64,000 nt of DNA from Simmondsia chinensis. Taxonomy: Eukaryota; Streptophyta; Magnoliopsida; Caryophyllales; Simmondsiaceae. Under the pieces are notes generated by a model, which was not told the DNA's origin, did not search any database, and was given only the letters and a program-made list of their open reading frames with translations. Location: NCBI GenBank assembly GCA_018398585.1, contig JAGTTD010000006.1, positions 2,554,501 through 2,618,500 on the forward strand. The letters are read 5' to 3'. The translations under genes and the position numbers were made by a program. Of the stretch, positions 5,745 to 62,016 are shown in pieces; positions within the stretch are counted from its first letter, which is position 1, and every line of letters begins with the position of its first letter.

Positions 5745-13742
<7,998 letters not shown>

Positions 13743-15927: not shown

Positions 15928-18900
15928 CTACAATGGGATTTGCTCTTCGACATCGACATAGCCTTTCGGGTTCATCGAGGAAATGCATAGATAGTGAGGG
16001 GTAAAGAAATAGATGAACAAAAACACCAACACCCCGAGATCAGCCTCCTCCCCTACTGCTGCTCGAGGAGGATTGAAAATGTATTTTTGGATTGCACACC
16101 ATAAGCAGTATAGGGTTGCGATGATTATGATAAGCTTAGCCGATTGATTGTATTGGGTTCTGATCGACTTGGAAGACCTTACCCTGCACGTCAGAACCGC
16201 AAACTATTGAGATTTGTACTTGAAGTGGAATAGTAAGTTCGACAAAATTGTTTCTTATAGATGTTATATTGCAGAAGAAAAGGAACAAAAGGAGCTCATT
16301 GTTTATTCCATGGTAAAATACAGTACGATAAGTAAATGGATTTGTTCCTTTTTTGGGAATATAATGCCTTTGTGAGGTACTTTTGCCTTAAATTTTTCAA
16401 TTGAGTCGTATGAAAAACCACCTGTTGATGTAAATGTAACCGAAGATCAAGGACGAGCAAAGGAAGGCGACTACTACGACCGCGTCTGGGGTGATGGGAG
16501 CAGGGCTAGCCCACCAACCGGTGCTTAGTATCCAAGTGTACATCGAAGAATGGCCATTTTCCTGCACCAAATTTGGAAAACAATCAGTGTCAAAAACTTC
16601 GGATATGAGTATAGTTGAAATGTCTCACATTGAAATTCTGACAAAAAAGGGATGTAAATTGGTTTTAGGATAGAACCTCACTTAGGTTTATATGTGGATC
16701 TCATATGTACCAACTTTATGGGTTGGGTCTAATATCTAGTGAAATTTAACAACACGTCCAATAGTTAGAAACTCTACTAAGGGAACATGGTAGGGTTTAA
16801 GGGCATGTTTGGCTAAAAAGCAACAGTCTCAATGCCCCAAGGGCTCCCGTCTAAGCAAGGTCTGGAGGAGTGGATGCACGCAACCTTCCCCTTGTTTCTG
16901 AGAACCCCCAACCTAAAGGCGCAACACAGAGACTTCCCAGGAGATCATCCATCTTAGTACTACTCTCGCCCAAACACGCTTAACTTTGGAGTTCTAATGA
17001 GACCCGATGCTTGCATGATGGTACCCTCTTTGGCGGGAAGACTATTTGGCTAAATTGTAAAAATACTGTTATCTTTGCAAAAGCATTTTTTTGCGGAAAT
17101 ACTCCTATAAAAGTGCTTTTCAAGTCATTTTTGTCTGAAAAAGTTTTAGTTTTTGCTTCTACCTCTACTGTAAAAGAAAAACACTATTTTTCTGTTTCTA
17201 CATAAGAACATTAAATCAACTTTTACTTCTATTAGAATACTTTTTTTTTCTAGGCCAACAACCTTCAAATTCTTGAAAAGTGCTCCAAGAACGAAACTTG
17301 GCCAAATAGATCCTGTGTCCACTTTAAATTTTCACGTAACAACTTAATCGTTTGAAATAGTTGGTTCCTTGACAGATAGCGAAGAGATGGTACCTCAAAT
17401 AAGTGGTCAAGAAAGAAGTGGGACAAAGAGCCAGCGTAGATAAGCAGAAAACACTGCAGCTTGTTTAGGGGCACCTACCAATATCATAAAAACAACAATA
17501 TGTTAAACAAAAATAAGCACCGATAAACAGAACTTATCTGATAAGACGAGAATTGTTATTTTTTTCACCTGTTTGATGTCGTTTATGCTCGTATACTGAT
17601 ACAACGAGACCAATTAATACTTGACCCATAGAGCTAACACAACACAATATCACTGTGATGTACTTTAGAGCTGTGGACTAGAGTACGCCTCAATTTCTCA
17701 GTTTTATCTCAATAACAAACAAAAGGGAAGAGCACTTTTTGGCGCGTTTTTGTAATTTTCCATTTTTTTATGCTGGGATTCTCGAAGTTTTATAGAGCTA
17801 CCGATACAAATGTTTTTTTTAATTATTAGCGAAACAATCGCGATACAAAAACGGCATTCCGTAAGGGTGGAACCCGAGACCACACCTTATTGAGCGAGAT
17901 CAAAGCAAAAGCAGAACAAAAATTAGAAAAGGGAAAGACCACACCTAGTACAAATGTAACAGTCTAGAGGTGTAAATGGAAGCCGAGGAATCAATAAGGG
18001 TCGAATTCAACGCACGTTATGCTTTGAAGCAGTGACAGACGGTCATATAATAAATATATCCGGTCACAAATTTTCTATCTGAGATAAACTTTTTATACTA
18101 AATTGGAAATTCATCACTTAATATAGATCATATCATATAAATGGAAAAAATATCAACAGCAGTGTATGCAATAAAAGTTTTGAAACTTAGGACCTCACTG
18201 CCTTAAAAGTTTTACCATTTATTATCTAAATGGTAAGTATTTTATCGTTTACATACCATAAAGTTTAAAAGATTTATCAACCGGGTACCCTCCTATCGAA
18301 ATTTGATATATTTTCATTAAAAATTCCTAAAGCGGAACGTCATCGCAATAATATATAAGTATTTTTTTATCTAAATTTGATAATGTTTCCCAGAAAATAT
18401 TAAATTATGACAGATGATTTCAGCAATAAATGGCTAGCTGATATCGAAAGTCAATAAAGTTTCCTTGTAGTCCGTTGGCTTTTTTTGGAAAAATTGAAAT
18501 GAGTTTTATATTTATATATATGGTAATATCATTGATAGAATAAAATTGTTATTATCAGAATAAAATTATAGTTTTTAAGATAATTTTGTAGCTCTTATTG
18601 TTCGTAAGTCACTTTGTTGTTTTGACAATAATAATTTTTGCCCTGACAATAACAAATGTCATATATGTATATATATATACACACACACACACAAACATAA
18701 CAGAGGGTATATCTAAGTGATAAAATATTCAAATTTCAAATACCTTGTCATATATATTAAAATATCGAAGGTAACTAGATGATAAATCCTAAATCTCAAA
18801 AAACCTAAGTGATAGTATCCCGATCAAATACAACTGGAAGAAGTTAGTCTATTAGCATTGATTATATAGTTATGTATATTTTTTAGGTGTTGTCATTATT

Positions 18901-21288
18901 AGGGCAAAAATATTATTATAGTCGGAGAAATAATGTGACTGATAGTAAATAATAACCATAAATTTTCACATAGTTGCCCTAGCATTAACATTTTTCCCTA
19001 CAAATAACATTACCGTTTTTTATATCTACAATATTGTTATTTACATTACCTTACTAATATATAATATTGAATCATTTACATTAAAGCTCCATATATTTGT
19101 CGAATGTATCAGTTTAATCCTTTAAGAATGTCAATTTAGTCACATAGCGAAATCGAGATTAAGTTAGTGATGTACTTCTAAACAGCTCAATTATTTCATA
19201 TGCAAGTAATCCAATACGAATTCACTCATTGACCCCATTAAAAATTTCACCGACTTAACATAAAGTTTATTCCAGTACTAAACTGACACAACATAATTTG
19301 GAGACTAACTACATTGAAATACTTAAAAATATAAAGACTAAGGTCTCGTTTGGTTGCCATATGAATTGAATCCCTGCGGAAATTATATTTCTTAGGAATT
19401 TAATTCGTGCGTTAACTTCCAAGGAAGTAGATAAAAGCAGTTTGGTTCCGAGGATGGGAAATAGAACTTCCTTGGGAAGGTTAGCAATTTCCAGATCCTG
19501 CATTCTGGCTATTTCCTGCCAACCAAGCAAGAGCCAATATTCGCACTTTCCATAAATTTTTACTTTCTGGGTTTACTTCCTGCATATCAAACGGGGCCTT
19601 GGAAGTAGAAATTCATAGAAAATACGGATTTTGGCTCTTGTTTAGTTGGCAAGAATTAGGCAGAATGCAGGAAGTGGAAATTGCTTCAAATCGTAGGAAA
19701 TAACTTACCTATCCTCTTAGGTAAATTTTAATTCCTTCATTTTTAACTATTGTCACCAAGGAAGTTCTATTTCCCATCCTTGCAACCAAACGTGTTGTAC
19801 CTACTTCTTGAGAAGTTGACACAAGAATTGAATTCTCATAAAATATAATTTTCCGCAAGAATTCAATTCATGTGGTGATCAAACGAGGCATAAGATTGCC
19901 AAATTTAGAAACCTCAAATGTAATTTACAATTTTTCTGGGTTGAATAAATTCCCCAATAATAGCAATAAATTAAGCCCTCCCCACATACTATAATTAAAC
20001 CCCCCCCCAATCACTACACAAAATTCCATCAATAATTCCCCTATAATAGCAACGAATGATTTTCCCAATATAACAATTATCAGGGCAAAATTATTCGTGA
20101 TTTTTAAAATAATTTTGCATGTAAGAAGATACCAACACGTAAGTACCGGATTCTATCAAAATTTCGAAGTTAGGATGAGAATAGTACTAAGATGGGTGAT
20201 CTCCTAGGAAGTCTTCATGTTACGCCCCTCGGATTAGAGGTTCTCGGAAATAGTCTCCCTTCAAGGTAAGTTAAGCATACTTGGGCAAGAGTAATACCAA
20301 AATGGGTGACTTTCTGTGAAGTCCTCGTGTTGTAACCCTCGGATTGGGGGTTCTCGGAAACAGCCTCCCTTCAGGGTGCTACCCTAAAGGGGGAAGGCTG
20401 CGTACACCCCCCCCCCCCCCCGGGACCCTGCTTAGGCGAGAGCCCTTGAGTCACTTGGAATGTTGCTTTTACGATAATTTTGTGACTTTCATTTTTATAA
20501 GACCTCGTTTGATATACGGGAAATAAACGCTGGAAGTAGAAATTTATGAAAAATACGAATTCTGGCTCTTGTTTAGTTAGTAAGAAGTAAGCAAAATGCA
20601 CCAAGTGAAAATTACTAAGTAATTTCTAATTCCTTTGTAATTCCATTGGTTTTTAACCAACCTCTCCGAGAAAGTTTTGTTTCTCATCTTGACAACCAAA
20701 CATGTTTTACCTATTTTCGTATCAGAACTTGACATAGGAACTGAATCCGTAGGAAATTCAACTTCCCGCAAAAATTCAATTTAAATGGCAACCAAACAAG
20801 GCTTAAGTTACGTTATTACTCTGTCGATAATAATTTTTATCCTAAAATAGTAACTATTGAAATTAATCCACCCATATGCTATAATTAAATATCCCCCAAT
20901 AACTACACAATCACACAAATTACCATAAATAATCACACAAAAATCGATAAAAAGATCAAAACTTAACTTTACTCACCCCAGAAACTGAATCCAACAAACC
21001 CTTCTGAACAGCAAATCTAGAAACCCACGAGTAGAAGAGAGAGAGTGGAAACCCTAACAACCCGTACCAAAATGGATCGTGGATGACGTCAGTGATAGCG
21101 GACCCGAACCACCCGCCCACGCCAGCGGTGCTGGTCAGCCACTCGGCGAAGGACCCGATGTCCGGCCCGAAGAAGGCGTTGATCGCGTAGATGACACAGT
21201 GGTGCGGGCTGAACCGCCCCTGTGACACCGCCATGAGGCCGGTGCCCGTGCCTAGGGCGTAGATCAGGTGCGGCCCTGGCCCCGGCAT
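15928..21288 (-). CDS. Plant-conserved polytopic membrane protein, YdjM/DUF457-like pattern (4 exons, 262 aa)
   Basis: Exons on the minus strand: 21288-20977, 17474-17394, 16561-16422 and 16183-15928, giving 262 codons plus TAG, with standard GT-AG junctions and phases 0, 0 and 2. ATG 21286-21288 starts the conserved MPGPGPH terminus; an upstream in-frame ATG at 21423 would add 45 low-complexity residues and is judged UTR. I recognise the protein as a widespread plant family without an assigned function. Hydrophobic segments lie near 75-95, 112-130, 155-176, 186-205 and 219-240. Polar residues group as HH29-30, PD42-43, H70, and SHFFLDH 122-128 followed by ENGH 132-135. This resembles the His/Asp spacing of YdjM/DUF457 inner-membrane metal hydrolases, an inference from pattern only. 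Position 71 is Asp where I expect a second His. Introns carry SINEs and MITEs. A GA/CT tract at 21331-21384 lies in the presumed 5'UTR. Confidence 0.88.
16818..17044 (-). mobile_element. 5S-headed SINE, subfamily A
   Basis: Lies in intron 2 of the membrane-protein gene. Read on the minus strand, a full 5S-like head (AAGTTAAGCGTGTTTGGGCG) is followed by the shared tail and GACTGTTGC. The flanks TTTGGCTAAA at 16808-16817 and 17045-17054 are a likely 10-bp target duplication. The insertion went into the terminal repeat of the MITE that follows. Confidence 0.8.
17043..17308. mobile_element. MITE, TATTTGGCTAA family
   Basis: The left end TATTTGGCTAAATTG and the reverse complement of the right end (CTATTTGGCCAAGTT) are inverted repeats around an AAGTGCTTTT-rich interior. 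It lies in intron 2 of the membrane-protein gene, about 85 bp downstream of exon 2. Similar to 10535-10722 and 33596-33825. Confidence 0.55.
17310..17374 (+). repeat. Probable solo LTR of the TRIM family
   Basis: The last 35 bp (GAAATAGTTGGTTCCTTGAC) match the 3' end of the 72-bp TRIM LTR seen at 44669-44740. It ends 20 bp from exon 2 of the membrane-protein gene, antisense to it. The 5' half is diverged. Confidence 0.45.
18525..18660. mobile_element. MITE with GTTATTGTCAGGGCAAAA termini
   Basis: The two arms are inverted: the right arm reads ACAATAATAATTTTTGCCC then TGACAATAAC, and the left arm is its decayed complement. The centre holds TTTTAAGATAATTTTGTAGC. Relatives lie at 29930-30070, 33905-34205, 34300-34640 and 36362-36500. 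Confidence 0.6.
19341..19600. mobile_element. MITE, GGCCTCGTTTGGTTGCC family, copy 1
   Basis: Starts AGGTCTCGTTTGGTTGCC and ends ATCAAACGGGGCCTT, an inverted-repeat pair, with the family interior AAATAGAACTTCCTTGG. Complete copies are also at 20500-20815, 33164-33513 and 48112-48396. Confidence 0.7.
19601..19893. mobile_element. MITE, GGCCTCGTTTGGTTGCC family, inverted copy lacking one end
   Basis: The reverse complement of the adjacent copy: starts GGAAGTAGAAATTCATAG without the terminal repeat and ends GATCAAACGAGGCAT. Together with 19341-19600 it forms a head-to-head pair. Confidence 0.65.
20126..20470 (+). mobile_element. 5S-headed SINE with a duplicated head (dimeric)
   Basis: A 5S-like head (20126 to about 20225) and the first 40 bp of tail are followed directly, near 20266, by a second partial 5S head (GTTAAGCATACTTGGGC to about 20335) and a full tail. 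The tail contains a 15-C tract at 20407-20421. A possible short duplication ATAATTTTG is at 20109-20117 and 20474-20482. It lies antisense in intron 1 of the membrane-protein gene and splits a GTTATTGTCAGGGC-type MITE, whose arms remain at about 20075-20125 and 20816-20865. Confidence 0.75.
20500..20815. mobile_element. MITE, GGCCTCGTTTGGTTGCC family
   Basis: Begins GACCTCGTTTGATATACGGG and ends GGCAACCAAACAAGGCTTA, an inverted terminal pair, with the usual family interior in reverse orientation. Lies in intron 1 of the membrane-protein gene, 160 bp downstream of exon 1. Confidence 0.7.
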
Positions 21289-22247: not shown

Positions 22248-22500
22248 ACCTAAAAGGGTACCAGCACTCAAGTATCGGATTTAATTAGAACTCTGAAGAT
22301 AAGCGTGCTTGGGGGAGAGTAGTACCAAGATGGATGACCTCCTAGAAAATCCTCGTGTTGCACCATTCAGGTTAAGGGTTATCGGAAATAGTCTCCCTTT
22401 AGGGTAGCACCTTAAAAGGGGAAAGCTGCGTATATCTATCCTCTCCCCCCTCCCCCCGACCCCTCTTAGACATGAACTCTTGGGACACTGGGAATGTTAC
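22248..22500 (+). mobile_element. 5S-headed SINE, subfamily A, full length
   Basis: Perfect 17-bp target duplication TATAAATACTATTAAAT at 22231-22247 and 22501-22517. The head begins near AAAAGGGTACCAGCACTCAA and retains AAGCGTGCTTGG, GATGGATGACC and the CCTCGTGTTGCACC end of 5S. The tail holds GGGAAAGCTGCG and CACTGGGAATGTTAC. Confidence 0.92.
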
Positions 22501-22517
22501 TATAAATACTATTAAAT

Positions 22518-23600: not shown

Positions 23601-23659
23601 GTAATTCCCCGACCTTGCATATGTGGGAATCCTTGAGGCACTGGAACTATTGTTGTTAT
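23601..23659 (+). mobile_element. LINE/SINE tail fragment with TSD
   Basis: A 59-bp remnant: CCCCGACCTTGCATATGTGG through CTTGAGGCACTGGAACTATTG. Flanked by ATTAATAAAAAA at 23589-23600 and 23660-23671, so it is a severely 5'-truncated insertion and not a deletion product. Confidence 0.75.
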
Positions 23660-24103: not shown

Positions 24104-24336
24104 CAACATACATTCCTAGTGCCCCAAGAGCTCCCGCCTAAGCAAGTTTTGAGAGGTGGATGTACGCAGTCTTCCTCCTCAGGGTGCTACGCTTGAGAGA
24201 AGCTATTTTCGAGTACTCCCAACCTGAGGGGTGAGGACTTCTTAGAAGGTCACACTACCTAATACTACTCTTATCCAAGCACATTTAACTTCAAAATTCT
24301 AATAGGATTCAATGCTTGCGTGTTAGTACCCTTTTT
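24104..24336 (-). mobile_element. 5S-headed SINE, subfamily A
   Basis: Flanked by 21-bp duplications at 24083-24103 and 24337-24357 with one mismatch (GATACGTG then T/A then AAGAATAAAATA). On the minus strand it has a decayed 5S head, CACCCCTCAGGTTGGGAGTA, then the tail and a CA-rich end. Confidence 0.9.
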
Positions 24337-24357
24337 GATACGTGAAAGAATAAAATA

Positions 24358-25762: not shown

Positions 25763-25872
25763 ACAACAACAACAACAGTCCCAGTGCCTCTCGGCTTCCG
25801 CAATAAGTAGGGTCTGGATGTACGCAGCCTTACCCCTTTCGAGTAAAAAAAAGGTTGTTTCCGAGACCCCTA
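25763..25872 (-). mobile_element. 5'-truncated LINE/SINE tail with TSD
   Basis: The 19-bp duplications at 25744-25762 and 25873-25891 differ at one base. On the minus strand it carries the tail (CTCGGAAACAACC, ACCCTACTTATTGCGG) and ends (TTG)n. No 5S head. A GA-repeat (about 25937-25957) follows. Confidence 0.85.
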
Positions 25873-26199
25873 ACATAAAAGATGAAGTGGAAGAAAGATA
25901 CAAAAAACAGGCAAAAAGCATGAGAGTTAAAATATTAGAGAGAGAGAGAGAGAGAGGATAAGCATGAAAAAGGAGGAAGCCAAAAAAATAGGAAACATTC
26001 TCTTTCTTCTCCCATAACAACAACAACATTTGTCAATTAATGTTAGGACCCCACCCCCCCTTAATGGATAAGCTTTAAACTTTTTAAATAATTTAAAAAA
26101 CAATCCCATTTTTGGTCAAATTATTATTAGCAATTCAAACATTAGGTGGCCTTTTGTATTTATGTTTGGAAATATATATATGTACGACATCTGAAAAGA

Positions 26200-26999: not shown

Positions 27000-27256
27000 G
27001 TAGACATGGATCGAATTCTACCGTCGATTTTAGGAAACGAGTTAAGGGAATTTGAGAAGGGATACCTCCACATGCAACCTATACGGCTTCCTTATTGTAT
27101 TATGTTTGAGTCTTTTAGACTTAAAAGGGTTTTCGTTATTCTTTCTTTTTCTTTCGGACTTTGACATCGTCCTAGCAGTTCAAAACTTAGTCATTGCTAT
27201 TAATTTGACTTGCTCTCTAGTGCGTTTTGTTGGATTATATCAATTATCGAAAAAAA

Positions 27257-27480
27257 CTAAAGAGGGTACCAACACGCCGTTACCGAATTCCATTCGAACT
27301 TCAAAGTTAAACGTGCTTAGGCGAAAGCAACACTAGGATGGGTGACCTCCTGAGAAATCCTCACCCTCAGATTAGGGGCATTCGGAAACAGCCTCTCCGA
27401 AAAGGGGGAAGGCCGCTTACATCCGCCCTCCCCAAACCCTACTTAGGCGGGAGTCCTTGAGGCACTGGATATATTATTTT
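27257..27480 (+). mobile_element. 5S-headed SINE, subfamily B
   Basis: The 20-bp target duplication TATATCAATTATCGAAAAAA is exact at 27236-27255 and 27481-27500. Subfamily B marks are present: CACGCCGT in the head and CCTCACCCTCAG in place of the CGTGTTGCAC end of 5S. The tail ends GATATATTATTTT without TTG repeats. Confidence 0.93.
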
Positions 27481-27634
27481 TATATCAATTATCGAAAAAA
27501 ATAACCAAATTGGAAATTAGAGCTAGTCTAATATTTTTTAAATTGACCACGTTATTACATGGTGGAATTTTAATGGGAACAAAATGCTTCGTGCATGTAA
27601 TTTTTAAATATATAGCTTACTAATTAATAAAAAC

Positions 27635-28754: not shown

Positions 28755-28890
28755 AGTTTACAACAACCACAAATCCAATGCCAAACGAGGCTCTCACCAA
28801 GACAGGATCCAAGGAGGGTGAGATGTACACAGTCTTATTATTATATGGTACTATCTAGTAGAAAAGTTATTTTCAAATAGCCTCTAACTT
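28755..28890 (-). mobile_element. Degenerate LINE/SINE tail
   Basis: On the minus strand a decayed shared tail (GGATCCTGTCTTGGTGAGAG) ending GGTTGTTG. No 5S head or clear duplication. The same decayed tail type occurs at 34190-34285 and 34493-34595. Confidence 0.5.
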
Positions 28891-29173
28891 TAAAAACAAA
28901 GATATAATAGTATTTATAAAATTTAAGTCAAATAAAATAATACAAAACATGCAAATATACAATGACGGGAGGGTGTCTTAGATTTAGAATGGTTATCCAT
29001 AATTCCGACAAAGTCTGCTCTATTTATCTTTGTGTTTGACGGGCAGTTTTGCATTTGACTTTACCTGTTTTGCATTCACATTTTAGTTAAGGTTTGATGT
29101 TAGAGATTTTATTTATAATAACTCTTAATAAAGACTCGGTATTAGAATCGTGTTTTTTTTATTCAACATCTTA

Positions 29174-29410
29174 TTACCAAAGAGGGCACCAATATGCCGT
29201 CATCGGATCCCATGAGAACTTCGAAGTTAAGCGTGCTTATGCGAGAGTAGTACCAGGATAGGTGATCTCCTGGGAAGTCCTCACCCTCAGATTGGGAGCA
29301 CTGGAAAACAGCCTCTCTTCAGGTTAATACCCTGAAGGGGGAAGGCTGCATACATTTGCCTTCCTAGACCCTGCGTAGGCGGAAGCCCTTAAGACACTGA
29401 ATATGTTTTC
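29174..29410 (+). mobile_element. 5S-headed SINE, subfamily B
   Basis: Head with ATGCCGTCATCGGATCCC, GAAGTTAAGCGTGCTT and CCTCACCCTCAG; tail with CCCTGAAGGGGGAAGG; ends GAATATGTTTTC. A T-rich 11-bp direct repeat at 29153-29163 and 29411-29421 may be the target duplication but is low complexity. Confidence 0.85.
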
Positions 29411-29929
29411 TTTTTTTTATTAGCCATGCATTTTGAGGCCGTAAGCGTTGATAATATAAGCATCTTTTTATATTTTGAACTAAATTACATTAATAACTAG
29501 ATAAGATTCGAACTTGATAATTCATAGAGCTTTTAGTGAAAAAATTATAATATTCAATCTAAAATCCCAATAATTTAAAAGTTTAAGCCTGTTTGACATC
29601 GGTTTGTAATAATTTTTTATTTTTGTAACAAAATGGAAAATATTATTTTCAAATATAGTGTATAAATTTGAAAAAATATAAAAACTAAAAATATAAAATG
29701 ATAAAGAAATAATTGTAAATTCAAATATGTTGCAAACTATGGGGCACCGGCCTCAATTTGATAAACCCAATTGTATGACATTTTTGACTTTTATAAATAA
29801 TATTATATCGCTCACATCATTATCGCTTAATTTTTCTTTTTTATATTTATAATATCCGGAAAGGCGATGTTCGATTCCAACCCGTGTCTAAATTTGGCTA
29901 ACTTACGCCATTTTCATATATTGATGACA

Positions 29930-33904: not shown

Positions 33905-34660
33905 TAAATTTGAAAGGTAATGTTGTTGTCAAATCAAAATTATTATTGTTAAAGCAAGATCATAAATTTTACCATAAGTTTGTAACTCTTGTTATTTGTA
34001 AGTTATATCATATTCTAACAATAATAAATTTTGCCCTGAAAATAAAAATTTTTATTTTGAGCAACAATCTATTGTCAGGTCAAAATTGTTACTACTAAAG
34101 TAAAAATGTAACTTTTAAGATAATTCTACGGCTCTCATTATTTCTAAGTAATTTTGCGGCTCTCGTTATTTATGAGTCACATTATTACTCTACAATAACG
34201 AGAACAAACCCCACTGCCATGAGGCCTCCTGCCAATGTAGAGTATGGAGATTGATAAGTACGCAATCTTATTTCTTTAAGGTGATATCATAAATGGAGGC
34301 CGTATTCGATGACTCTCAAGTCATATTATTACTCTAATAATAATTTTTTACCTAAAAATAAAAATTCACATTTTCGAACGGTAATCTATTATCAGGAAAA
34401 AATTGTTACTAACATACCAAAAATGTAAATTTTAAGATAATTTTACGACTCTTATTATTTATAAGTCAAATTATTACTTTACAATAATGACAACAAACCT
34501 CACCGTCACGGGGACTCTCACCAATACAGGGTCTGCAGGTAAGAAGTATGGAGTCTTATTTTTTTACGGTGCTACCCTAATTAAAAGCTACATCCGATGA
34601 CTTTCAAGTCATATTATTATTCTAATAATAGTATTTTTTACTTAAAATAAAAATTCACAA
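33905..34660. repeat. Nested cluster of GTTATTGTCAGGGC-type MITEs and SINE/LINE tails
   Basis: At least two MITE copies (arms at 33913-33960/34005-34045 and 34070-34180) and a third piece (34300-34500) are interrupted by two minus-strand decayed tails at 34190-34285 and 34493-34595. The phrase TTTTAAGATAATT occurs repeatedly. Order suggests sequential insertion of tails into MITE right arms. Confidence 0.5.
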
Positions 34661-35699: not shown

Positions 35700-36045
35700 T
35701 TTTTTATTATTGCTAACACTAGCGTTTCTAAGTGTATACAACTTCTTTTTTGGTGTACTTATTTGCTTATCTGCCTACATGACTATTACTTGTCTTGCAG
35801 TTGCCTTCCATTGTATTTTGCTTCGTAATGCTTGCCTTGTGTTATGTATACCACTCTTATGCTTTGTTGCTCTCGTGCTTCTAAAATGTCGTGCTTCCAT
35901 ACTGCCACGCTTTTCAGGTTGGGGGTCCTTGGATATAATCTCCCGTTACGTAGCACCCTGAAAGGGAAGATCTGCGTACATTCATCCTTCAGACCCTGCT
36001 TAGACGAGAGCCCTTGGGCACTGGGATTATTATTGTCATTGTGCA
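35700..36045 (+). mobile_element. 5'-truncated LINE 3' end
   Basis: Sequence with ATGCTTTGTTGCTCTCGTG (about 35868) matches the 11345-11672 copy, followed by the conserved tail (GGTTGGGGGTCCTTGGA, AGACCCTGCTTAGACGAGAG) ending GGGATTATTATTG. No 5S head. Confidence 0.65.
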
Positions 36046-36873: not shown

Positions 36874-37113
36874 ACCAAAAAGGGTGCCAATAAGCCATCA
36901 CCGGATCCCGTTATACCTCCGAAGCTACGCGTGTTTGCACGAGAGTAGTACCAGGATGGGTGATCTTGCGGGAAGTCCTCACCCTCAGGTTGGGGACACT
37001 CGAAAACAGCCTCTCTTCAGGGTAATACCTTGTAAGAGAAAGGCTACGTACATTCGTCCCCTCCAGACCCTACTTAGGCGGGAGCCCTTAAGGCATTAGG
37101 TATGTTGCTTTTT
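36874..37113 (+). mobile_element. 5S-headed SINE, subfamily B
   Basis: Head: AAGGGTGCCAATAAGCCATC, GGATCCCG, GAGAGTAGTACCAGGATGGG and CCTCACCCTCAGG (subfamily B mark). Tail through GCGGGAGCCCTTAAGGCATT, ending GGTATGTTGCTTTTTAA. No unambiguous duplication in the T-rich flanks. Confidence 0.85.
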
Positions 37114-37224: not shown

Positions 37225-37337
37225 AATCGGAAACAGCCTCCCTTCTGGGAAGCCCCCGAAAAAGGGAAGGCTGCGTACATCTACCCTCCAGACTCTGCGT
37301 ATGCGGGAGCTCTTTGAGGCACTGGGTTGTTGTTATT
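37225..37337 (+). mobile_element. Tail-only LINE/SINE copy with 16-bp TSD
   Basis: Flanked by ATATGTTAAAAAAATT at 37209-37224 and 37338-37353. Contains only the last 113 bp of the shared tail (CGGAAACAGCCTCCCTTC to GGGTTGTTGTTATT). Shows that the tail alone marks the 3' side of retrotransposition events. Confidence 0.88.
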
Positions 37338-41183: not shown

Positions 41184-41713
41184 TAGGGTTATTTACACCA
41201 AAAGATCATATACTTTCACATTGTATTAATTTAGTAGCTGTAGTTTTAATTTTATCAATTTTGCGGACCAGCTCTCAGGCTTCTCAAGTTAGGGGTCCTC
41301 GGAAACAGCTTCTCTTCAGGGTTGCCCCCTGAAGGGGGAAGGCTGCGTTCACCTACCCCCAGACCCTGTTTTTGTGGGAGCTCTTGCAGGCACTGGGCTT
41401 TTTGTAGTTGTTGTTGTTGTTTTAATTTTATCAATTTAGCAGTTATGATCAAATTGAAGTTAAGTCAATGACGGATTTTTTAACAAAAAAATAATATTCT
41501 ATGCAAGTAACCTATTAAAAATCCACCCGTTGACTGCATTTAACCTAATCCGTCGTTGAACCATTAAAATTTTATTATAAATTTATATAAATTTTATTTT
41601 AAGGATCAAATTGACAAAATATAACTTGTATAGAAACTAAATTAACACAACTAATATTATAGGACCTAAATTAATATAACAGGTAAAGTATAGAGATATT
41701 TGGTATAAATACG
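41184..41713. mobile_element. MITE with AGGGTTATTTACACC termini, interrupted by a tail insertion
   Basis: Starts TAGGGTTATTTACACCAAA, ends TTTGGTATAAATACGTC. Same family as 27635-28028 but 140 bp longer because of the insertion at 41262-41419. Confidence 0.7.
41262..41419 (+). mobile_element. 5'-truncated LINE tail with 18-bp TSD
   Basis: The duplication TTTTAATTTTATCAATTT is exact at 41244-41261 and 41420-41437. Contains CTCAGGCTTCTCAAGTTAGG, the tail hairpin CTTCAGGG...CCCTGAAG, and ends in TTG repeats. No 5S head. Confidence 0.9.
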
Positions 41714-44740: not shown

Positions 44741-44785
44741 TATAAAATTGTCCAATCAAATAATACAACATGTTAGCTTACAAAA

Positions 44786-45026
44786 AAAAAACAACATTCT
44801 CAGTGCCCCAAGGGCTCCCGCCTAAGCAGGGTCAAGGGGATGGATGTACGCAGCCTTCCCCCTTTAGGACCCTAAAGGGAGGCTATTTCCGAGAACCCTC
44901 AACCTAAGGAATGCAACACGAGAACTTCCCAGGAGGTCACCCATCTTGATACTACTCTCGCCCAAGCACGCTTAACTTCAGAATTCTAACGGGATCCAAT
45001 ACTTGCGTGTTGGTACCCTTTTAGGT
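44786..45026 (-). mobile_element. 5S-headed SINE, subfamily A, best-preserved copy
   Basis: The 19-bp duplication AACATGTTAGCTTACAAAA is exact at 44767-44785 and 45027-45045. On the minus strand: AAAAGGGTACCAACACGCAA, GGATCCCG, GAAGTTAAGCGTGCTTGGGC (5S A-box), GATGGGTGACCTCCTGGGAA (5S C-box), CTCGTGTTGC (5S end), AGGTTGAGGGTTCTCGGAAA, the tail hairpin with CCCTTTAGG/CCTAAAGGG-type pairing, then GGGAGCCCTTGGGGCACTGA and a TTGTT end. Target side is the 3' flank of a TRIM. Confidence 0.95.
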
Positions 45027-45429
45027 AACATGTTAGCTTACAAAACAAATTCAATACATTATCTCACGGTTCGAAGTAATATACAAACTTCATGTTCGCA
45101 TTAATTTTATCCTATAGAAATTTTGAAGTATATTTTTTGATAATAACTCTGATAAACGCGTTAAAGCGCCAAGGGGGAGCCAAAAAAATAAAAATAAGAG
45201 CAAAAATTGATCGAGGTTACCTCAACGATACAAACCCGACAAGACAAGATAAGTATTTAAAATAGGAGTGGGTCTTCTTGATAAGTATATATATATATAT
45301 GGGTTATTGTTGAACAAGTACAGATTTGTCCAAGTTAATATTTTGATAATTTTAGGTAGATAAGCTCTTATGACCCTATACTACCAAGTCTTTCTTTTTC
45401 TTAAAAAAAAAAATAAAATTGTTTGGTCA
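45027..45429. other. Spacer
   Basis: Contains a (TA)n microsatellite at 45285-45300. No gene recognised. Confidence 0.4.
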
Positions 45430-50272: not shown

Positions 50273-50282
50273 TATAAAAACA

Positions 50283-50514
50283 GGACACCAATACGCTGTC
50301 ACCGAATCCTATTAGAACTCTGAAGTTAAGCGTGCTTGGGCGAGAGTAGTACAAGAATGGGTGACCTCCTAGGAAGTCCTCATCCTCAGGTTGGAGGCAC
50401 TGAAAAACAACATCTCTTCAGGTTAACACCCTTAAGGAAGAAGGCTGCGTACATCCGCCCCCTAGACCCCGCATAGGCGAAAGCCCTTGAGACATCAGGT
50501 ATGTTCCTATTTTA
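50283..50514 (+). mobile_element. 5S-headed SINE, subfamily B
   Basis: A 10-bp duplication TATAAAAACA at 50273-50282 and 50515-50524. Head retains GAAGTTAAGCGTGCTTGGGC and GAATGGGTGACCTCCTAGGA; B marks ATACGCTGTCACCG and CCTCATCCTCAGG; tail ends GGTATGTTCCTATTTTA. Confidence 0.88.
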
Positions 50515-50524
50515 TATAAAAACA

Positions 50525-52694
50525 AGATATTTAAATTTGTTACGTAAAATACTGTTTAGAATATATAATAATGCAACATCCCATAAATAGAAAAAAAATC
50601 TGAAAAAGGAAATAAAATAAAAATTGTGGAGTTGGATAATTTCCACCTTTTGACTTTTACAAACGTTTCTAAGCTTCCTTTCTTGAATTGAATTGTATTT
50701 TCTCATTCCAATCCAAATTCATCCAGTTTCTTCGGATAAATTACATATTAATATCATAAGATTTAAACAATTTATTAATTTTATAAAATAATATTTTAAT
50801 TCAAAGTTATAGATATTTAATCAATTAGTCCAAATAATAGTGTATAAGGGTCTAAAATAGGCATTGCATATACATTTTCTTCGTGTGTCGGTTTATAGGA
50901 ATAGCAAACGAATGGTGAGTTTATTAAAAATAACGGAAAGTTTTACACCATTTTATATTATCGTTTGAACTATTTTATTAAAATATATGTGATTTTTAGA
51001 CTAGTGTGTTAATTCATAAAGTTTAGAGACTAAAAAATTAATAAACTAAACCTCTTGATATTAATACGTAATTTACCTTCTTTTTTCCCTAATTTACCTT
51101 TTATTTATTTATTTAATTTACATTTTAGGGCCTGAAATATTGTTTGCTCACTATAAGTTTTTATTTTAAATTTTTGTTTGAATTTAAAAAAAAAAAAAAT
51201 CGTATATAACACATAGCTTTTAATGTTTTAAAATCCCAAAGTGTTCTACGAGATAAGATTTGAACTTATAATTTATTTTTCTACTACTAATTTCACACCT
51301 AATTAAAAAATACTTATATTATTCATTTATTGTCTTTATCACTCCCAGCACTTTCAGCGAGAGCTGTGTATAACCTCAAGCAACTAAACAAGGGCTTGGG
51401 GCCCTCGGGTTTTAGGGGTCGTAATTATTATTAATAAGATCTTTTGATTAAGATTTTTCTAATGTATTAGTATTATTTTTTTAAAACTTGAGCTTGGAAT
51501 GTTGATAATGTCAAAACCGACCCTACTTTTAACAACACATTAATGTAATTTAATTTTTGTAACGAGTGTCACATATATACTCATTAATAATGAATTTTTT
51601 TTTTAGCAAACTACCCATTTTCACGCCATTTTTCAATAAGGGAAAAAAAAATAAAGAGTTATTTACACTATTAGTCTATGTATTATATCAGCCATTTAAG
51701 TTTAATTCTCAAACTTTTAATTGTTTTAATTTAGCTCAAGCCCAATGTAAAACTTAAAATTAATTCATAACTATCAACACTTATATATGTTCTCGATATC
51801 AAGAAATTAATATCTTCATTCCTTTTTATTAATTTCTGACTAGAATAATAATGTTAGTTAAGTTATAAATTAACATTCATATTACAATCAGACTTTATTC
51901 AAATAATTTCAATTATATAAAGACCAAATAGACACAATTAAAAATTTATGTAACACTATAAACGAAATACACAAATAAATATCTTAAATAACCCAACAAA
52001 TAATAAAAAATAATAAACATATTAACTCTCAATAAATTCCCATAAATCCCATATTATCAAAGTATTACAGATAATGCACAAAGTAATTGATTAATTATAT
52101 TTTTCTTATTTCCTTTTTTTTTTGTGTAAATTAACTCATTACAACATGAAATTGTAATCAATAATTAACTAGGCTTTTTCCGTGCGACGCACGAATAGTA
52201 TTTATATTTTATATTATTTGTTTTGTCGCTTTACAAATTTTTGTAAATGTATCGATTTTATTTTGTTGTAAGTAATATTTGATGTATATAATATTATTTG
52301 AGCAAATTTTAAAAGTGTAAGTTCCCCTAAAATGCTTTTTGTCTTCTCTTTCATGTTTCCGTATACTTGATCTAGTTTATTGCCCGCAATTAGACTTATT
52401 GCTAACTTAATATTTTTAAATTTAAATTATCTGTTTGAATATCTTTTCTTTTATTCATGCATGGCCGTAAAGTCAATCATTAATATTTTGTATTATAGTA
52501 AACTACTTTTCCCCGCTCTATTAACGTTACCTAATTAAAAATTTATCTTCCTACTCCATGCAATAAGTGATAATTATCTCATGGTGCGAATTAATTTGTT
52601 AATTTATAGTTTTTGTGTATATTTTGGCAAATGAAAGGTTTTGATCGAAGAATATTGCGTGCAATTTATAGAAGTGCACACAATGCAACAAACC
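50525..52694. other. AT-rich spacer
   Basis: About 51650-51995 is a partial copy of the AGGGTTATTTACACC-type MITE. A palindrome CGTGCGACGCACG occurs at 52180-52192. No gene recognised. Confidence 0.4.
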
Positions 52695-52935
52695 TAGGAG
52701 GATATCAACACTCAAGCACCGAATCTCATTAAAATTTTGAAGTTAAGCGTGCTTGGGCAAGAGTAGTGTCAAGATAGGTAACCTTTCGAAAAGTCCTCGT
52801 GCTGCACCCCTCAGGTTGGTAGTTTTCGAAAATAGCTTCCCTTGAAGGTAGCACCCTGAAGAGAAAAGGCTGCGTACATCCACCCCCAGACCCTGCTTAG
52901 ACGGGAGCCATTAAGGCACTAGGGCTGTTGTTGTT
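52695..52935 (+). mobile_element. 5S-headed SINE, subfamily A
   Basis: Head with CAACACTCAAGCACCGAATC, AAGTTAAGCGTGCTTGGGC and CTCGTGCTGCACCCCTCAGG; tail GGCTGCGTACATCCACCCC to GGCACTAGGGCTGTTGTTGT. The flanks share AATGCAA but a duplication is not certain. It lies 0.2-0.5 kb upstream of the TPS leader, a position where it could affect the promoter. Confidence 0.85.
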
Positions 52936-53468: not shown

Positions 53469-56400
53469 GTATTTCTCTTTTCTTTTCCTTTTTTTTTTGG
53501 GTAAATTATATATATTAGTATTCAAGAGTTGGTGTATTAATTTTTGAGTCTAGAAACTTACATTTATTTGGTAAAATTATTTTTCATACTATTGTTTGAT
53601 TATTTTGTTAATGAAATGTTACTTCTTGGATTAAGAAATTATATTAAAAAAAATGTAATTGACCCCCTTTTTTCTCTTCTTTTGATTTTTGTGTCCTAAT
53701 TTTTCGGATTTTTTGTTGGTATTCTGTCACTGATTTTCTGCAAAAATGGGGTGTTTTTTAGTGATTAATGGGTTATTTTTGTTGAATTTGTATTTGTGAT
53801 TTGTGGGTAATTAATCTATTTAGTTTATAACAGTTGGATGAGTTCTGTTTTTCAGCCATTTCTTGTTTATATGTTAAGAAATCTACTGTATCGAAAACTT
53901 AAGTTGATCGGTGAAGACATGAAACGACTATGAGCCTATTTTATACCTGTTTTATATGCCATTATGCTTCTCAGGTTGGGGTCCCCGGACACAACCCTGA
54001 AAGGTAAGGCTGTGTATATGCTCGGCCCCTGCATATGCGGGAGCCCTTGAGGCACTAGGTCTGTTGTTGTTGTTTACTTGAATTATATTAATTTAACGGT
54101 GTGGTTGTTGGAATTTGAACTCGTGCCCTCTCAGTCAATAGAATTTTTGTGCCTTGTTAAGAAACCATACCGATAACTTAAACTGATGGGTGAGAGCTAT
54201 AAAGTTTTGATTACCAAGTCTTTGACACCTTATTGAAAAGTGAACTATCTTAAAAGTTTAAATTGATAGGTAAAGATCGTTGAATTATTTCATATTGTAA
54301 CATTACATTGTAATTTATGGGTTTATTTTCATCTTCATGGATCTGATTTCCTTACTATTGTTTGGTAGCCCAAAATTATTTGAACTATTATTTGAAATTA
54401 AAGTGATTCCGCAACCGTCGGTTTATATTATTTAGGCTCTTTATCTCAATTTTGGTCATTTTTACAACTTCGGAATATTGAGTCTAAGTGACACAAACTG
54501 GTAGATAAAAATGATTTTGATTGCAAATAATAGTTCAAGGCGTATTATAAAAGTGAGTTTTTTTACTAAAAACCACTTAAGTTCTAGGTGCCGTTTTAAA
54601 TTTTTTAAAATGAAACCTAAACTTTTTGAAGTTTTTTAATGTTACACCTTAATATTAACCTCGGTAGCAATACTTAAGGATTCTTTGGAAAACTAAATCT
54701 ATGTTTTTATAAACATTGTTCTAGCTTTATGTTTGGTAAAAAAAACTTAAAAAAGATTAAAAATCTAATAAAATTATTTTCAAAACGTCGTTTTTTAATC
54801 TTTAGAAGACCCAAAGTTACAAACACAAAATGATACCAAATAGACCCTAATTCGATAGTTTGAGGTTAGGGGCCCACTAAAATGGACTCTTTTTAGTGTA
54901 GCTCTCTTAAGGGATAAGACTGTGGAGATCTCACTCCCTAGAACGTAGTTCAAGTGCGAGCCCTGGAGGTACTAAGGTTTTTTTTTTTTTTGTTTTTTTT
55001 TGATCAGTTTGAGGCTCATTTTTTTTTAATTTTTATTTGTTCATGGTTTGAGAAACATTTTAAGTCAGTCAACAGAGTAGCATTTTGTAGGAATAAAGCT
55101 GCTTACATCTTATCCCTCAAACCCCACCTTGACAAAAGCAACATTTGCAATGCCTCAGAGGCTCCCGCCTTAGCAGGGTCTGGGGTGGTGGATGTACGCA
55201 GCCTTCCCCCTTCAGGAGGTCACCCATCTTGGTACTACTTCGTCCGAGCACGTTTAACTTCGGAGTTCTAATGAGATTCGGTGTTTGCGTATTGGTATCC
55301 TCTTAGGTTTTAATAGCTAATTGTCCCTTCCCACATCGGAAAATTGTTCCCCCTTGTGCTCTTCCTTTAGTACAAAAGACCAAGATACGAGTAGATTTTT
55401 TATGGTTTTTTTTTTCATTTTTAATTATTTTTTAATATTTTTCTTCCTTTAGTATCAGTGGATGGATTCCTTGTATCTAGTAAGTGGGGACGAGGTACCT
55501 GTCTTCTATTATTTTCTTAGATAAGTGGCCTTGCTGGCATAGCTAGTAAAATATATGTATAATTGGCGTATTAAATATATATCTGTATTTTTTTTGTTTA
55601 AAAGGAGCGTTTATTATGATTACCAAAAATGCGGTAAAATACCCATGTTTTTGATGTTAGTCGTTTAATACATATTTTATTACATGTATCAAATATTATA
55701 GATAATCGTATTTATATCTAAATTAAGTATTTATATTCTATATTTTATAAAATTTGTCACTTCAACTTCCAAACTCTGGGCTTATTTATTAGGTAGCACG
55801 CTTCTTACTGTCGCTGCTATATTTAGTACCATCAAATATAAATCAAAATGTAACCGCATATAAATTTTTTATAAGTTACTGAATTTTTGACTGCAGTTTT
55901 TATGTATACAGTTAAATAATACATGAACTTATTAAATTATGTTTAATTTCTGTATTGTATTTTACTAACTATGGTTGTTGGTATTGCTTTTTTATTTGTA
56001 ATTTTTGATTTTTACGAAATTAAAAACTAGGTTATAGCAACAACTTTTTCTTGTTTTTAGTTTTTTTTTTTCCAAGTTTGAGAAGAAACTGATAACAAAA
56101 AAATAAGAACAAGAAAAATTCGTTCTTGAGGCTTGGTTTCATTTTCTTAAAAATTAAAAAATTACTAACAGAAAGCGATACTAAATAGGATGTGTAAATT
56201 TTCATGTACTAGTTGTTTATTGAGGGTCGTATTTCTATGAATAATGAATGAGGATAAGTTTGGAATCCCTCTATGGTAATATGAGGAAAATGTTGCTATA
56301 AATCATAAGCGCGTGCATTACGAAAGAAACTTAAAGCCTGTTTGGTATCATTTTTTGTTTGCAATATTCGGTTTTTTCGAAACTAAATATCAATCCTTGA

Positions 56401-57137
56401 AAAATATTTTTAGTTTTTGGTTTATATTTTTTAGTGTTTTCCTAGTTTGAGTGCAAACCGAAAATAGAAAACCAAAATTAGAAAAAAACTTGTTTTGAAA
56501 ACTTGATTTTTAGTTTCTAGAAAACGAAAACTATAATTGAAAAATGATACCAAGCAGACCCTTACTAAATGAAGATAACGGGTTAGGGAGGGCATTAATT
56601 ATTATGGACCAATGAAAGTAATTCGAAAACATATATGGCAAGATCATAACTTTTTGACATTAGTATTATGAATTCTACCATTATTTTACCTAATTTACGA
56701 GCAATCGCTTTGGCGAGAGCCTTTCAAGAATTGGGTTTGTTGTTGTTGTTGTACGAGAAAACGCTTCTAACACCGTTACGTTCGATTATACATGGTGTAA
56801 CGGTTACGTTTCATCATTGCATATTAAAGACAACGCTCTAATTGATGTTCTAGGTGACTTTTCCAATCCTCGTATTTGAATTTCTTATCATGTTTCTCCG
56901 TTTGATTTTACTTTTCTGTAGTCAGCACTAACGATGAATGGTTTATTGTTTACACTTATATTGAATCATGTCACGTTAATTTTTCATTATTTTTCGTTGT
57001 CTTTGTTGTTTTTGTAACTCGGGCCGTTTTTTGCTGATCACTATTAATCGTTCGTTTACTAATGTTGCAGTCATGGAGTCGAAATCATACGCAAGCTTTC
57101 TGGATTTAGCAACTGGAGGTCTATTAGATATCCCTAA
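53404..57137 (+). CDS. Upstream ORF of the TPS gene (43 codons, spliced)
   Basis: Begins at ATG 53404, runs 65 nt to the end of the leader exon (53468), continues after the 5'UTR intron at 57071 and stops at TAA 57135-57137. It overlaps the main ATG (57073) by 65 nt in another frame. The start context is weak (T at -3, A at +4), whereas the main start is strong (G at -3, G at +4), so leaky scanning would be needed for main-frame translation. No known peptide family is recognised; it may act on translation and not as a protein. Confidence 0.45.
53878..54303 (-). mobile_element. Degenerate TRIM carrying a tail insertion
   Basis: LTR-like ends at about 53880-53948 and 54232-54303 (ending ATTGTAACA); internal GAATTTGAACTCGTGCCCTC. 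The tail insertion is at 53965-54074. Confidence 0.5.
53965..54074 (+). mobile_element. 5'-truncated LINE/SINE tail
   Basis: CTTCTCAGGTTGGGGTCCCC to GCGGGAGCCCTTGAGGCACT, ending in TTG repeats. No 5S head. Confidence 0.7.
54860..54985 (+). mobile_element. Decayed LINE/SINE tail
   Basis: GAGGTTAGGGGCCCACT through GCGAGCCCTGGAGGTACTAA, ending in a T run. Weak but collinear with the tail. Confidence 0.45.
55141..55306 (-). mobile_element. 5S-headed SINE with internal deletion
   Basis: On the minus strand the 5S head (GAAGTTAAACGTGCTCGGAC, AAGATGGGTGACCTCC) runs directly into GAAGGGGGAAGGCTGCG of the tail, so the 5S 3' end and first tail half are missing. Ends GCATTGCAAATGTT. A second decayed plus-strand tail (GCTGCTTACATCTTATCCCT) abuts at about 55090-55140. 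Confidence 0.75.
55971..56193. mobile_element. MITE, GCCTGTTTGGTATC family
   Basis: Ends GTTGTTGGTATTGCTTTTTT and AAAGCGATACTAAATAGGA are inverted; lies in the TPS 5'UTR intron. Confidence 0.5.
56335..56563. mobile_element. MITE, GCCTGTTTGGTATC family, best copy
   Basis: Left end GCCTGTTTGGTATCATTTTT; the reverse complement of the right end is GGGTCTGCTTGGTATCATTT. About 20-bp terminal repeats and a palindromic interior. Lies in the TPS 5'UTR intron. Confidence 0.7.
56707..56751 (+). mobile_element. Extremely truncated LINE/SINE tail
   Basis: CTTTGGCGAGAGCCTTTCAA then GGGTTTG and TTG repeats. TACGAG flanks both sides, a possible short duplication. Confidence 0.6.
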
Positions 57138-61245: not shown

Positions 61246-61797
61246 AAGATGGGCCATGATGGCGAAAGTGTGGAAGTAGAATCAGCAACGGTATCTTAGG
61301 AAGATATTATATCAGAGAAAAGAATTAAAAAACGTATAACATTTATTGTACGTATATGCAAGGAGGATGACATGTTTTTAACATAGGAACAAGAAAAACG
61401 AAAATATTTTCTTCAGTAAACAATATTGTTCTTATTCTTTTTTCAAAACCGTTTCGTCCTACTTGTATATAAAGTATATGATATATTTGTTTATGTCTTT
61501 TCTCGAACATATTATCTTTTGAGATATTTTGTGAAATATTGTGGATTTTTCTGGTATTTAAAAAAAGATTGGAAAAAGGGTTAATATAAAGAGTAAATTT
61601 AGATGCTGATGTGCATAGAAAATCATAGAAATTGCGGTTTATCTGATGTAAAAAAAAAAAAAAAAAAGAAAAAGAAAATCATAGTTTTAATTTAATTGTA
61701 GCCCAACTGTTTTGTGAGCTTGGACCCTCTGTAAATATTTCTATTTTCAACATATGGGTTCTTTTTATGGCTTTGTTTGGATTGTATAAGGATTCAT
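61246..61797 (+). other. TPS 3' flank
   Basis: The presumed 3'UTR and terminator region. AT-rich with several TGTA and TATATA-like elements and no canonical AATAAA near the stop. An 18-A tract lies around 61651-61668. Confidence 0.4.
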
Positions 61798-62016
61798 TTA
61801 CCAGACATTAAGACATCGGATTCCATTAGCACTTCAAAGTTAAGTGTGTTTTGACGAGAGTAGTATCAGGATGGGTGATTTTCTGAGAAGTCCTCGTGTT
61901 GCCAATCCTATAAGGTTGAGGGTTTTTGAAAATAGCCTTTCAGTAGGGTTACACTCTGAAGGGATAAGGCTGCGTATATTTACCTCTTCCAGATTCAATT
62001 GGGTCTGTTATTGTTA
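61798..62016 (+). mobile_element. 5S-headed SINE, subfamily A, decayed tail
   Basis: Flanked by diverged duplications at 61773-61797 and 62017-62039, both starting TTGTTTGGATTG. Head: ACATCGGATTCCATTAGCAC, AAAGTTAAGTGTG, AGGATGGGTGATTTTCTGAG, CTCGTGTTGCC. The tail lacks the last GGGAGCCCTTGAGG block and ends GGGTCTGTTATTGTTATTG. Confidence 0.85.

What the first reader, a model, noticed from the sequence alone, without database searches (positions are those of the whole stretch)
44786..45026. A 5S-rRNA-headed SINE family in a plant genome
Thirteen dispersed loci (10047, 16818, 20126, 22248, 24104, 27257, 29174, 36874, 44786, 50283, 52695, 55141 and 61798) carry a head that aligns to plant 5S rRNA through the A-box, intermediate element and C-box, followed by a constant tail of about 140 bp. 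Several are bounded by target duplications of 10-21 bp (exact at 10047, 22248, 27257 and 44786), which shows retroposition and not rDNA fragments. Most plant SINEs I know of are tRNA-headed; 5S-headed SINEs (SINE3) are known mainly from animals. Whether this family is already catalogued I cannot tell.
Basis: partly seen in the sequence, partly recalled or inferred. Interest (0 to 1): 0.88.

Follow-up and report, generated by a model that had tools for sequence, protein, structure and literature searches.

The report
Plant 5S-rRNA-headed SINE with LINE tail
A plant genome carries a dispersed family of small jumping sequences built from the plant's own 5S ribosomal RNA gene joined to the tail of a larger mobile element, a combination described mainly in animals and sought without success in maize.

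Summary
Thirteen loci in the window carry a 5S-rRNA head fused to a constant ~125-bp tail; no tRNA was found. The family is dispersed over many contigs of the window's 831-Mb genome. Its consensus matches the genome's own array 5S genes at 90-93 of 95 positions from position 25 to the 5S 3' end. Of 48 copies, 30 have strong target duplications of 12-24 bp; no mismatched control pair does.

In 5 of 5 sampled RT C-termini the tail follows. SINE insertion sites show the published RTE signature; 11 tail-only copies do not.

I conclude it is a 5S-headed SINE mobilised by an RTE LINE, probably born when 5S RNA was joined at its 3' end to LINE RNA. In the listings and passages I saw, no plant 5S-headed SINE appears, and a maize study sought one without success. 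Repbase and SINEBase could not be searched.

The parts
44786..45026 (-). 5S-headed SINE, near full length (index copy)
   Evidence: 5S_rRNA 63 bits; 91.2% to family consensus; 19-bp duplication at 44767-44785 and 45027-45045
10062..10232 (-). 5S-headed SINE, 5'-truncated inside the 5S head
   Evidence: nhmmer model 77-244; 17-bp exact duplication by eye
16815..17034 (-). 5S-headed SINE
   Evidence: no TSD found
20119..20470 (+). 5S-headed SINE, composite with partly duplicated head and body
   Evidence: two overlapping model matches
22248..22502 (+). 5S-headed SINE, 17-bp exact TSD
24105..24339 (-). 5S-headed SINE, 19-bp TSD with one mismatch
27255..27482 (+). 5S-headed SINE (variant lacking GTGTTGC near the 5S 3' end), exact TSD
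29176..29414 (+). 5S-headed SINE (same variant)
36874..37113 (+). 5S-headed SINE (same variant)
50274..50512 (+). 5S-headed SINE (same variant); no TSD found
52692..52935 (+). 5S-headed SINE
55134..55308 (-). 5S-headed SINE with internal deletion (model 1-97 and 164-246)
61811..61988 (+). 5S-headed SINE, diverged, downstream of the TPS gene (Rfam 5S match at 61796-61907)
7263..8959 (+). Partner LINE: reverse transcriptase coding remnant (frameshifted), RTE-type
   Evidence: RVT_1 E=2.1e-15 for 7994-8962; homologue map
9107..9262 (+). 3' tail of the partner LINE, homologous to the SINE tail, ending (GTT)n
   Evidence: nhmmer model 118-244 at 9116-9245; alignment
11535..11677 (+). LINE 3' end, upstream sequence shared with the LINE at 9107
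35903..36040 (+). probable LINE 3' end, short upstream match to 11535
41279..41418 (+). 5'-truncated tail-only copy with TSD
37225..37337 (+). 5'-truncated tail-only copy with TSD
25768..25886 (-). 5'-truncated tail-only copy with TSD
34199..34319 (-). 5'-truncated tail-only copy with TSD
34488..34607 (-). tail-only copy
53962..54071 (+). tail-only copy
54857..54989 (+). tail-only copy
28764..28894 (-). tail-only copy, diverged
23606..23657 (+). short tail-only copy with TSD

Best explanation
This is a ~246-bp SINE family. Shown: the 5' half is the host's own 5S rRNA sequence up to its 3' end (the first ~24 nt differ), and the 3' half is the 3' end of an RTE-type LINE present in the same genome; copies are flanked by target duplications with an RTE-like target signature. 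Inferred: RNA polymerase III transcribes it from the 5S internal promoter (A box, IE, C box) and stops at the 3' TTTT; the LINE's reverse transcriptase recognises the shared tail and inserts cDNA by target-primed reverse transcription at T-stretch sites. Inferred with less confidence (about 0.6): the family was born when 5S RNA was joined at its natural 3' end to the LINE 3' region, by RT template switch or RNA ligation, which also removed the 5S terminator. The confidence below is for identity and mobilisation.
For: Head: no indel against own 5S over 119 nt; 92 of 95 identical to the main array gene and 93 of 95 to the second-array gene at positions 25-119; A box 15/15, IE 6/6, C box 17/18 (box limits recalled). 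The consensus has no TTTT before its 3' end. Junction: own 5S reads TTGCACCCC-TTTTT, SINE TTGCACCCC-TCAGG; of 14 LINE or tail-only sequences that reach this point 8 read CTTYTYAGG and the rest vary, so the switch lies at the 5S 3' end with 1-2 nt shared. Tail: 5 of 5 RT C-terminal matches in the sampled DNA (window, L037 twice, L048, L043) are followed within 157-237 bp by the tail, one of them broken off by an adjoining SINE. TSD: score of at least 12 in 30 of 48 copies against none of the mismatched pairs. Target signature in those 30: T at -10/-9/-8/-7 in 25/21/21/19, A at -1 in 16, T at +1 in 21; TTTT within -18..-5 in 13 of 30 against 34 of 240 control stretches; P about 5e-11 for the T block. 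This matches the plant RTE signature described in PMC13295347 (passages). A full 5S joined to the 5' end of a SINE copy at C29:34924734 suggests that the same kind of join recurred.
Against: No transcription data. The first 24 nt of the head match own 5S at only 11-14 positions, so the 5' end is unexplained. The 11 tail-only copies with TSDs do not show the T block (17 of 44 cells at -10..-7) or A at -1 (2 of 11), though 8 of 11 duplications begin with T. 18 of 48 copies lack a strong TSD. A tail hairpin tested on 30 sequences shows no covariation beyond shuffles. Assignment of the LINE to the RTE clade rests on its (GTT)n end, the target signature and the absence of a zf-RVT match, not on a tree with labelled RTEs. 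Template switch, RNA ligation and DNA-level fusion are not separated by sequence. The 9-bp repeat around the C29 chimera lies in TA-rich DNA and is weak.
Confidence: 0.85

Rival explanations
1. Head swap: an older tRNA-headed SINE with the same LINE-derived tail (Angio-SINE / Au / TS kind) existed first, and a 5S head replaced the tRNA head later.
For: TS SINE of tobacco shares ~100 bases of 3' end with an RTE LINE and is tRNA-headed (PMC3747384, passages); the tail resembles the Au / Angio-SINE 3' end (recalled, not tested).
Against: ARAGORN found no tRNA in the window or in 20 random 10-kb regions, though it can miss degenerate SINE heads. Of 31 tail matches without an adjoining 5S head that were looked at (one of them the tail of headed copy 55134), several share LINE 3'-UTR sequence upstream and 11 tail-only matches begin at a target duplication; the others are unresolved. 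The whole-genome pattern search that would test this did not complete.
Confidence: 0.25
2. A 5'-truncated LINE inserted right behind a 5S gene, and the resulting 5S-LINE transcription unit became the first SINE (DNA-level fusion rather than RNA joining).
For: RTE insertion favours T stretches, and the 5S genes read here are followed by one.
Against: The signature puts the T stretch ~7-10 nt before the duplication start, with 12-24 bp of duplication before the element, so insertion at the 5S terminator should leave the T run and ~20-30 nt between 5S and tail; the SINE has none. Later deletion could have removed such a gap.
Confidence: 0.12
3. The repeats are solo LTRs or fragments of a Cassandra TRIM, the known plant mobile element with 5S sequence.
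For: Cassandra LTRs carry a 5S promoter and are widespread in plants (PMC10853983, PMC10886601, passages).
Against: Duplications are 12-24 bp, not the short ones of LTR elements; the 3' half is a LINE tail.
Confidence: 0.01
4. Dispersed 5S pseudogenes of the rDNA array.
For: Heads are nearly identical to own 5S over 95 nt.
Against: Constant non-5S tail, altered 5' end, TSDs, dispersal over many contigs.
Confidence: 0.01

Closest known systems
Ped-1 SINE of springhare (5S head + BovB tail; PMC3747384 Table 1, passage)
   Same: 5S rRNA promoter joined to the 3' end of an RTE-clade LINE
   Different: Mammal; other LINE; no sequence comparison made here
Animal SINE3 families (Lepidoptera HaSE3, PxSE4/5; PMC10886601, PMC8010984, passages)
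   Same: 5S head with A box, IE, C box; region upstream of the promoter more diverged than the promoter
   Different: Animal hosts; other partner LINEs; PxSE4/5 are 389 bp and about 63% identical to a Bombyx 5S, whereas this head is ~97% identical to its host's 5S over 95 nt
TS SINE of tobacco with RTE-1_Stu (PMC3747384, passages); Au-like / Angio-SINEs of plants (Seibt 2020 not held; recalled)
   Same: 3' end shared with a plant RTE LINE that ends in (TTG)n; similar tail sequence (recalled)
   Different: tRNA heads; this family has a 5S head
Cassandra TRIM (PMC10853983, PMC7215508, passages)
   Same: Plant mobile element using the 5S promoter
   Different: LTR retrotransposon; this one has a LINE tail and long TSDs
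5S/L1 and U6/L1 chimeric insertions of mammals (PMC13174262, passages)
   Same: Small RNA joined to the 5' side of a LINE 3' part in one insertion
   Different: Mammalian 5S chimeras are typically antisense and truncated; here 5S is sense and reaches its 3' end, and the chimera multiplied

Membership tests
SINE (general) | Short, dispersed, flanked by target duplications of variable length | tested here: met
   246-bp consensus, copies on many contigs, 30 of 48 with strong TSDs
SINE (general) | Head derived from a Pol III RNA gene | tested here: met
SINE (general) | 3' end shared with a partner LINE | tested here: met
   5 of 5 RT C-termini followed by the tail
SINE (general) | Pol III transcript observed | not testable with these tools
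   no RNA data held
SINE3 (5S-derived SINEs, as a functional class) | 5S head with A box, IE and C box | tested here: met
   15/15, 6/6, 17/18 identical to own 5S (box limits recalled)
SINE3 (as one clade sharing sequence beyond the head) | Body or tail homologous to animal SINE3 | not tested
   Repbase and SINEBase not held; SINE3 is said to have arisen several times (PMC10886601, passage)
RTE-mobilised plant SINE | T stretch about 10 nt before a duplication that starts (A)T | tested here: met
   not seen in 11 tail-only copies
RTE-clade LINE (the partner) | 3' (TTG)n repeat | tested here: met
   (GTT)n at 9107-9262 and in several other tails; PMC3747384 passage says plant RTE LINEs end so
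RTE-clade LINE (the partner) | Reverse transcriptase falls in the RTE clade | tested here: inconclusive
   RVT_1 without zf-RVT; no labelled tree; PDB comparison does not assign a clade
Angio-SINE superfamily | 37-bp Angio-domain at the 3' end | not testable with these tools
   defining paper not held; resemblance recalled only
Cassandra TRIM | Short LTR-type target duplication (5 bp in the related TRIMs of PMC10886601) | tested here: not met
   TSDs of 12-24 bp
Cassandra TRIM | Two LTRs with PBS and PPT between them | not tested
   not searched for; the 3' half is a LINE tail

The most novel reading that the evidence does not exclude
The first 5S-headed SINE in a plant: born in this lineage by joining of the host's own 5S RNA, at its natural 3' end, to an RTE LINE 3' end, then amplified, probably to thousands of copies (3 headed copies in 200 kb sampled). 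The same genome keeps a likely later case of the same reaction (a full 5S joined to the 5' end of a SINE copy), so SINE birth by RNA joining could be studied in one genome. It also supplies a plant SINE3 of the kind that the proposed origin of Cassandra requires.
Probability: 0.5. Interest if true: 0.72.

Novelty: new variant of a known kind. Interest (0 to 1): 0.62.

Why it matters
A 2022 review calls plant SINEs tRNA-derived (PMC9033089, passage), and a maize study that searched for 5S-derived SINEs reports none (PMC2774510, passage). A plant family with a 5S head and a recognisable partner LINE shows that 5S heads also arise in plants, and repeats there the head-tail pairing of springhare Ped-1. 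The junction at the 5S 3' end gives a concrete model of SINE birth that can be tested. It bears on the speculation that Cassandra arose from a SINE3 inserted in an LTR (PMC10886601, passage). Practically, finders that look only for tRNA-type A and B boxes would miss it (inference).

Tried and rejected
Cassandra or other LTR origin: rejected on TSD length and LINE tail. rDNA fragments: rejected. Tail hairpin kept by compensatory change: tested on 30 sequences (13 LINE or tail-only, 17 SINE), no excess over shuffles, and RNAalifold keeps only 4 pairs; not claimed. Absence of internal TTTT as a sign of selection: 79% of shuffles also lack it; not claimed. Rebuilding of 5S helix I by the altered 5' end with the junction region: the minimum-energy fold contains it, but 1.9% of shuffled 12-mers pair as well or better, and the 12-mer pairs better with windows starting at ~190-200; left as an unexplained observation. 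Search for the junction sequence in paper text and in viral contigs: nothing. PDB comparison of the LINE RT: weak matches to group II, R2 and L1 RTs; does not assign a clade.

The 20 copies that made the consensus, and 19 more, were picked by similarity to the index copy, so identities and ages are biased. Copy number is not measured: 7,837 and 3,019 first-look candidates are tool counts of which 40 were scored each time. Paper listings were capped: 20 of 49 shown, 20 of 189, 25 of 60, 15 of 35.

Full report
Observation. The window lies at C1:2554501-2618500 of an 831-Mb plant genome in 35 contigs. Rfam's 5S model matches at 10 places over its gathering score and at 12 with E<1; ARAGORN reports no tRNA. 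A profile of the family finds 13 loci with a 5S head and 12 with the tail alone in the window.

Family in the genome. A search with the index copy scored 40 of 7,837 candidates and listed 41 matches on many contigs. I fetched 39 other copies with flanks. Twenty of them give a 246-bp consensus; they are 90.9-96.3% identical to it. A search with the consensus scored 40 of 3,019 candidates; the best copy is 96% and the 40 are 92-96% identical, so no copy scored was very young. The window copies are 79.9-91.2% identical, hence mostly older. In 20 random 10-kb regions (200 kb; 20 of 40 drawn; contigs sampled unevenly) there were 3 headed copies and 22 tail-only matches, with hits in 11 of 20 regions. 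The window, with 13 headed copies in 64 kb, is richer than that sample.

The head is the host's own 5S. 5S arrays lie on C8. Eight units read alike over the 119-nt gene. Against the SINE consensus there is no indel over 119 nt. Positions 25-119 match at 92 of 95 (main array gene) and 93 of 95 (second array); six further copies match at 90-92; positions 1-24 match at only 11-14. The A box and IE are identical and the C box has one change (box limits recalled). The eight 5S sequences compared all have T at two positions where the SINE has C (79 and 95).

The tail is the 3' end of a LINE. Fragments at 7263-8962 encode a non-LTR reverse transcriptase (RVT_1 E=2.1e-15; map); among the 120 relatives listed, the named ones are plant proteins, and identity is 52-63%. 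It is followed at 9116-9245 by the SINE tail and (GTT)n. In the random sample, L037 (two copies), L048 and L043 also hold the RT C-terminus, and each is followed by the tail: with the window 5 of 5, at 157-237 bp. Eleven tail-only copies begin directly at a target duplication with a score of at least 12, as expected of 5'-truncated LINE insertions. Several LINE tails end in (GTT)n while the SINE consensus ends TTGCTTTT, the contrast that PMC13295347 reports for legume RTE LINEs and SINEs (passages). PMC3747384 (passages) states that plant RTE LINEs end in (TTG)n or (TTGATG)n and almost all plant L1 LINEs in poly(A).

Integration. Strong target duplications (score of at least 12) occur in 30 of 48 copies tested, 26 of 39 from elsewhere and 4 of 9 from the window; no mismatched pair of flanks reached a score of 10. 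Mean length is 18 bp, range 12-24. Before the duplication, T occupies -10 to -7 in 86 of 120 cells (P about 5e-11 against 0.42, the mean of positions -25 to -11), A is at -1 in 16 of 30 and T at +1 in 21 of 30. This is the signature described for plant RTE elements in PMC13295347. Against this, the 11 tail-only copies show T at +1 (8 of 11) but neither the T block (17 of 44) nor A at -1 (2 of 11).

How it was probably born. The own 5S gene ends TTGCACCCC and continues TTTTT. The SINE reads TTGCACCCC-TCAGG. Of 14 LINE or tail-only sequences that reach this point, 8 read CTTYTYAGG and the others vary. The switch therefore lies at the end of the 5S transcript, with 1-2 nt shared. This is what joining of 5S RNA to LINE RNA would give, either because the reverse transcriptase jumped or because the RNAs were ligated; both are discussed for U6/L1 in PMC13174262 (passages). 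Insertion of a LINE behind a 5S gene would instead leave the T run and a gap. At C29:34924734 (L083) a full 5S, with the authentic 5' end, is joined through CTTTACAAA to a SINE copy; a 9-bp repeat TATATTAAA flanks the pair, but it lies in TA-rich DNA. I read it as a likely later case of the same reaction; this is one locus. The first ~24 nt of the SINE remain unexplained.

How it works. Shown: head, tail, duplications, signature. Inferred: Pol III transcription from the 5S promoter to the terminal TTTT, recognition of the tail by the LINE enzyme, target-primed insertion.

What is known. PMC9033089 (passages) says that plant SINEs derive from tRNAs. PMC2774510 (passage) searched maize for 5S RNA-derived SINEs without success. 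Ped-1 of the springhare pairs a 5S head with a BovB (RTE) tail (PMC3747384, table passage). Animal SINE3 families are described in PMC10886601 and PMC8010984 (passages), and a fungal 5S-related family in PMC5063351 (search listing only). 'SINE3' in PMC1297646 is a name used for Arabidopsis elements; the passages do not say they are 5S-derived. PMC3095306 speaks of 5S sequences in SINE3 'including plants', but cites the Cassandra paper for it (passage). My ten paper searches (some listings capped) showed no plant 5S-headed SINE; the library lacks most subscription journals, and Repbase, SINEBase and the Angio-domain paper could not be read. The host belongs near Caryophyllales by one gene; its species is unknown to me.

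Verdict. A real 5S-headed SINE of a plant with an identified partner LINE: a new variant of a known kind.

Noticed in passing
L083 (C29:34924734-34925096): Full-length 5S with authentic 5' end joined in sense to the 5' end of a SINE copy, flanked by a 9-bp TATATTAAA repeat in TA-rich DNA: possible chimeric retroposition.
   Followed up: partly
window 27255, 29176, 36874, 50274: These copies lack GTGTTGC near the 5S 3' end and share head changes: a second subfamily, also at L083; 24105 shares the deletion but not the head changes.
   Followed up: partly
SINE consensus 1-12 and about 115-125: The altered 5' end can pair across the 5S/LINE junction, rebuilding a helix I; 1.9% of shuffles do as well.
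   Followed up: partly
L037:8105-8339: A 5S-headed SINE directly adjoins a LINE tail that breaks off there, on the opposite strand, as if inserted into it.
   Followed up: no
window 57088-61245: Trehalose-phosphate synthase gene (first coding part by Pfam; later exons at 59700-60032 and 60883-61245 recognised by eye); a SINE copy lies downstream at 61811.
   Followed up: partly
window 30780-31067 (-) and 1032-1601 (+): zf-RVT fragments, probably of L1-type LINEs (the second below the Pfam cut-off).
   Followed up: no
window 19447-19714: Match to MIR5638 far below its cut-off, possibly a MITE.
   Followed up: no
window 20956-21456 (-): Open frame of 166 aa without a Pfam match that looks like an exon of a membrane protein.
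   Followed up: no
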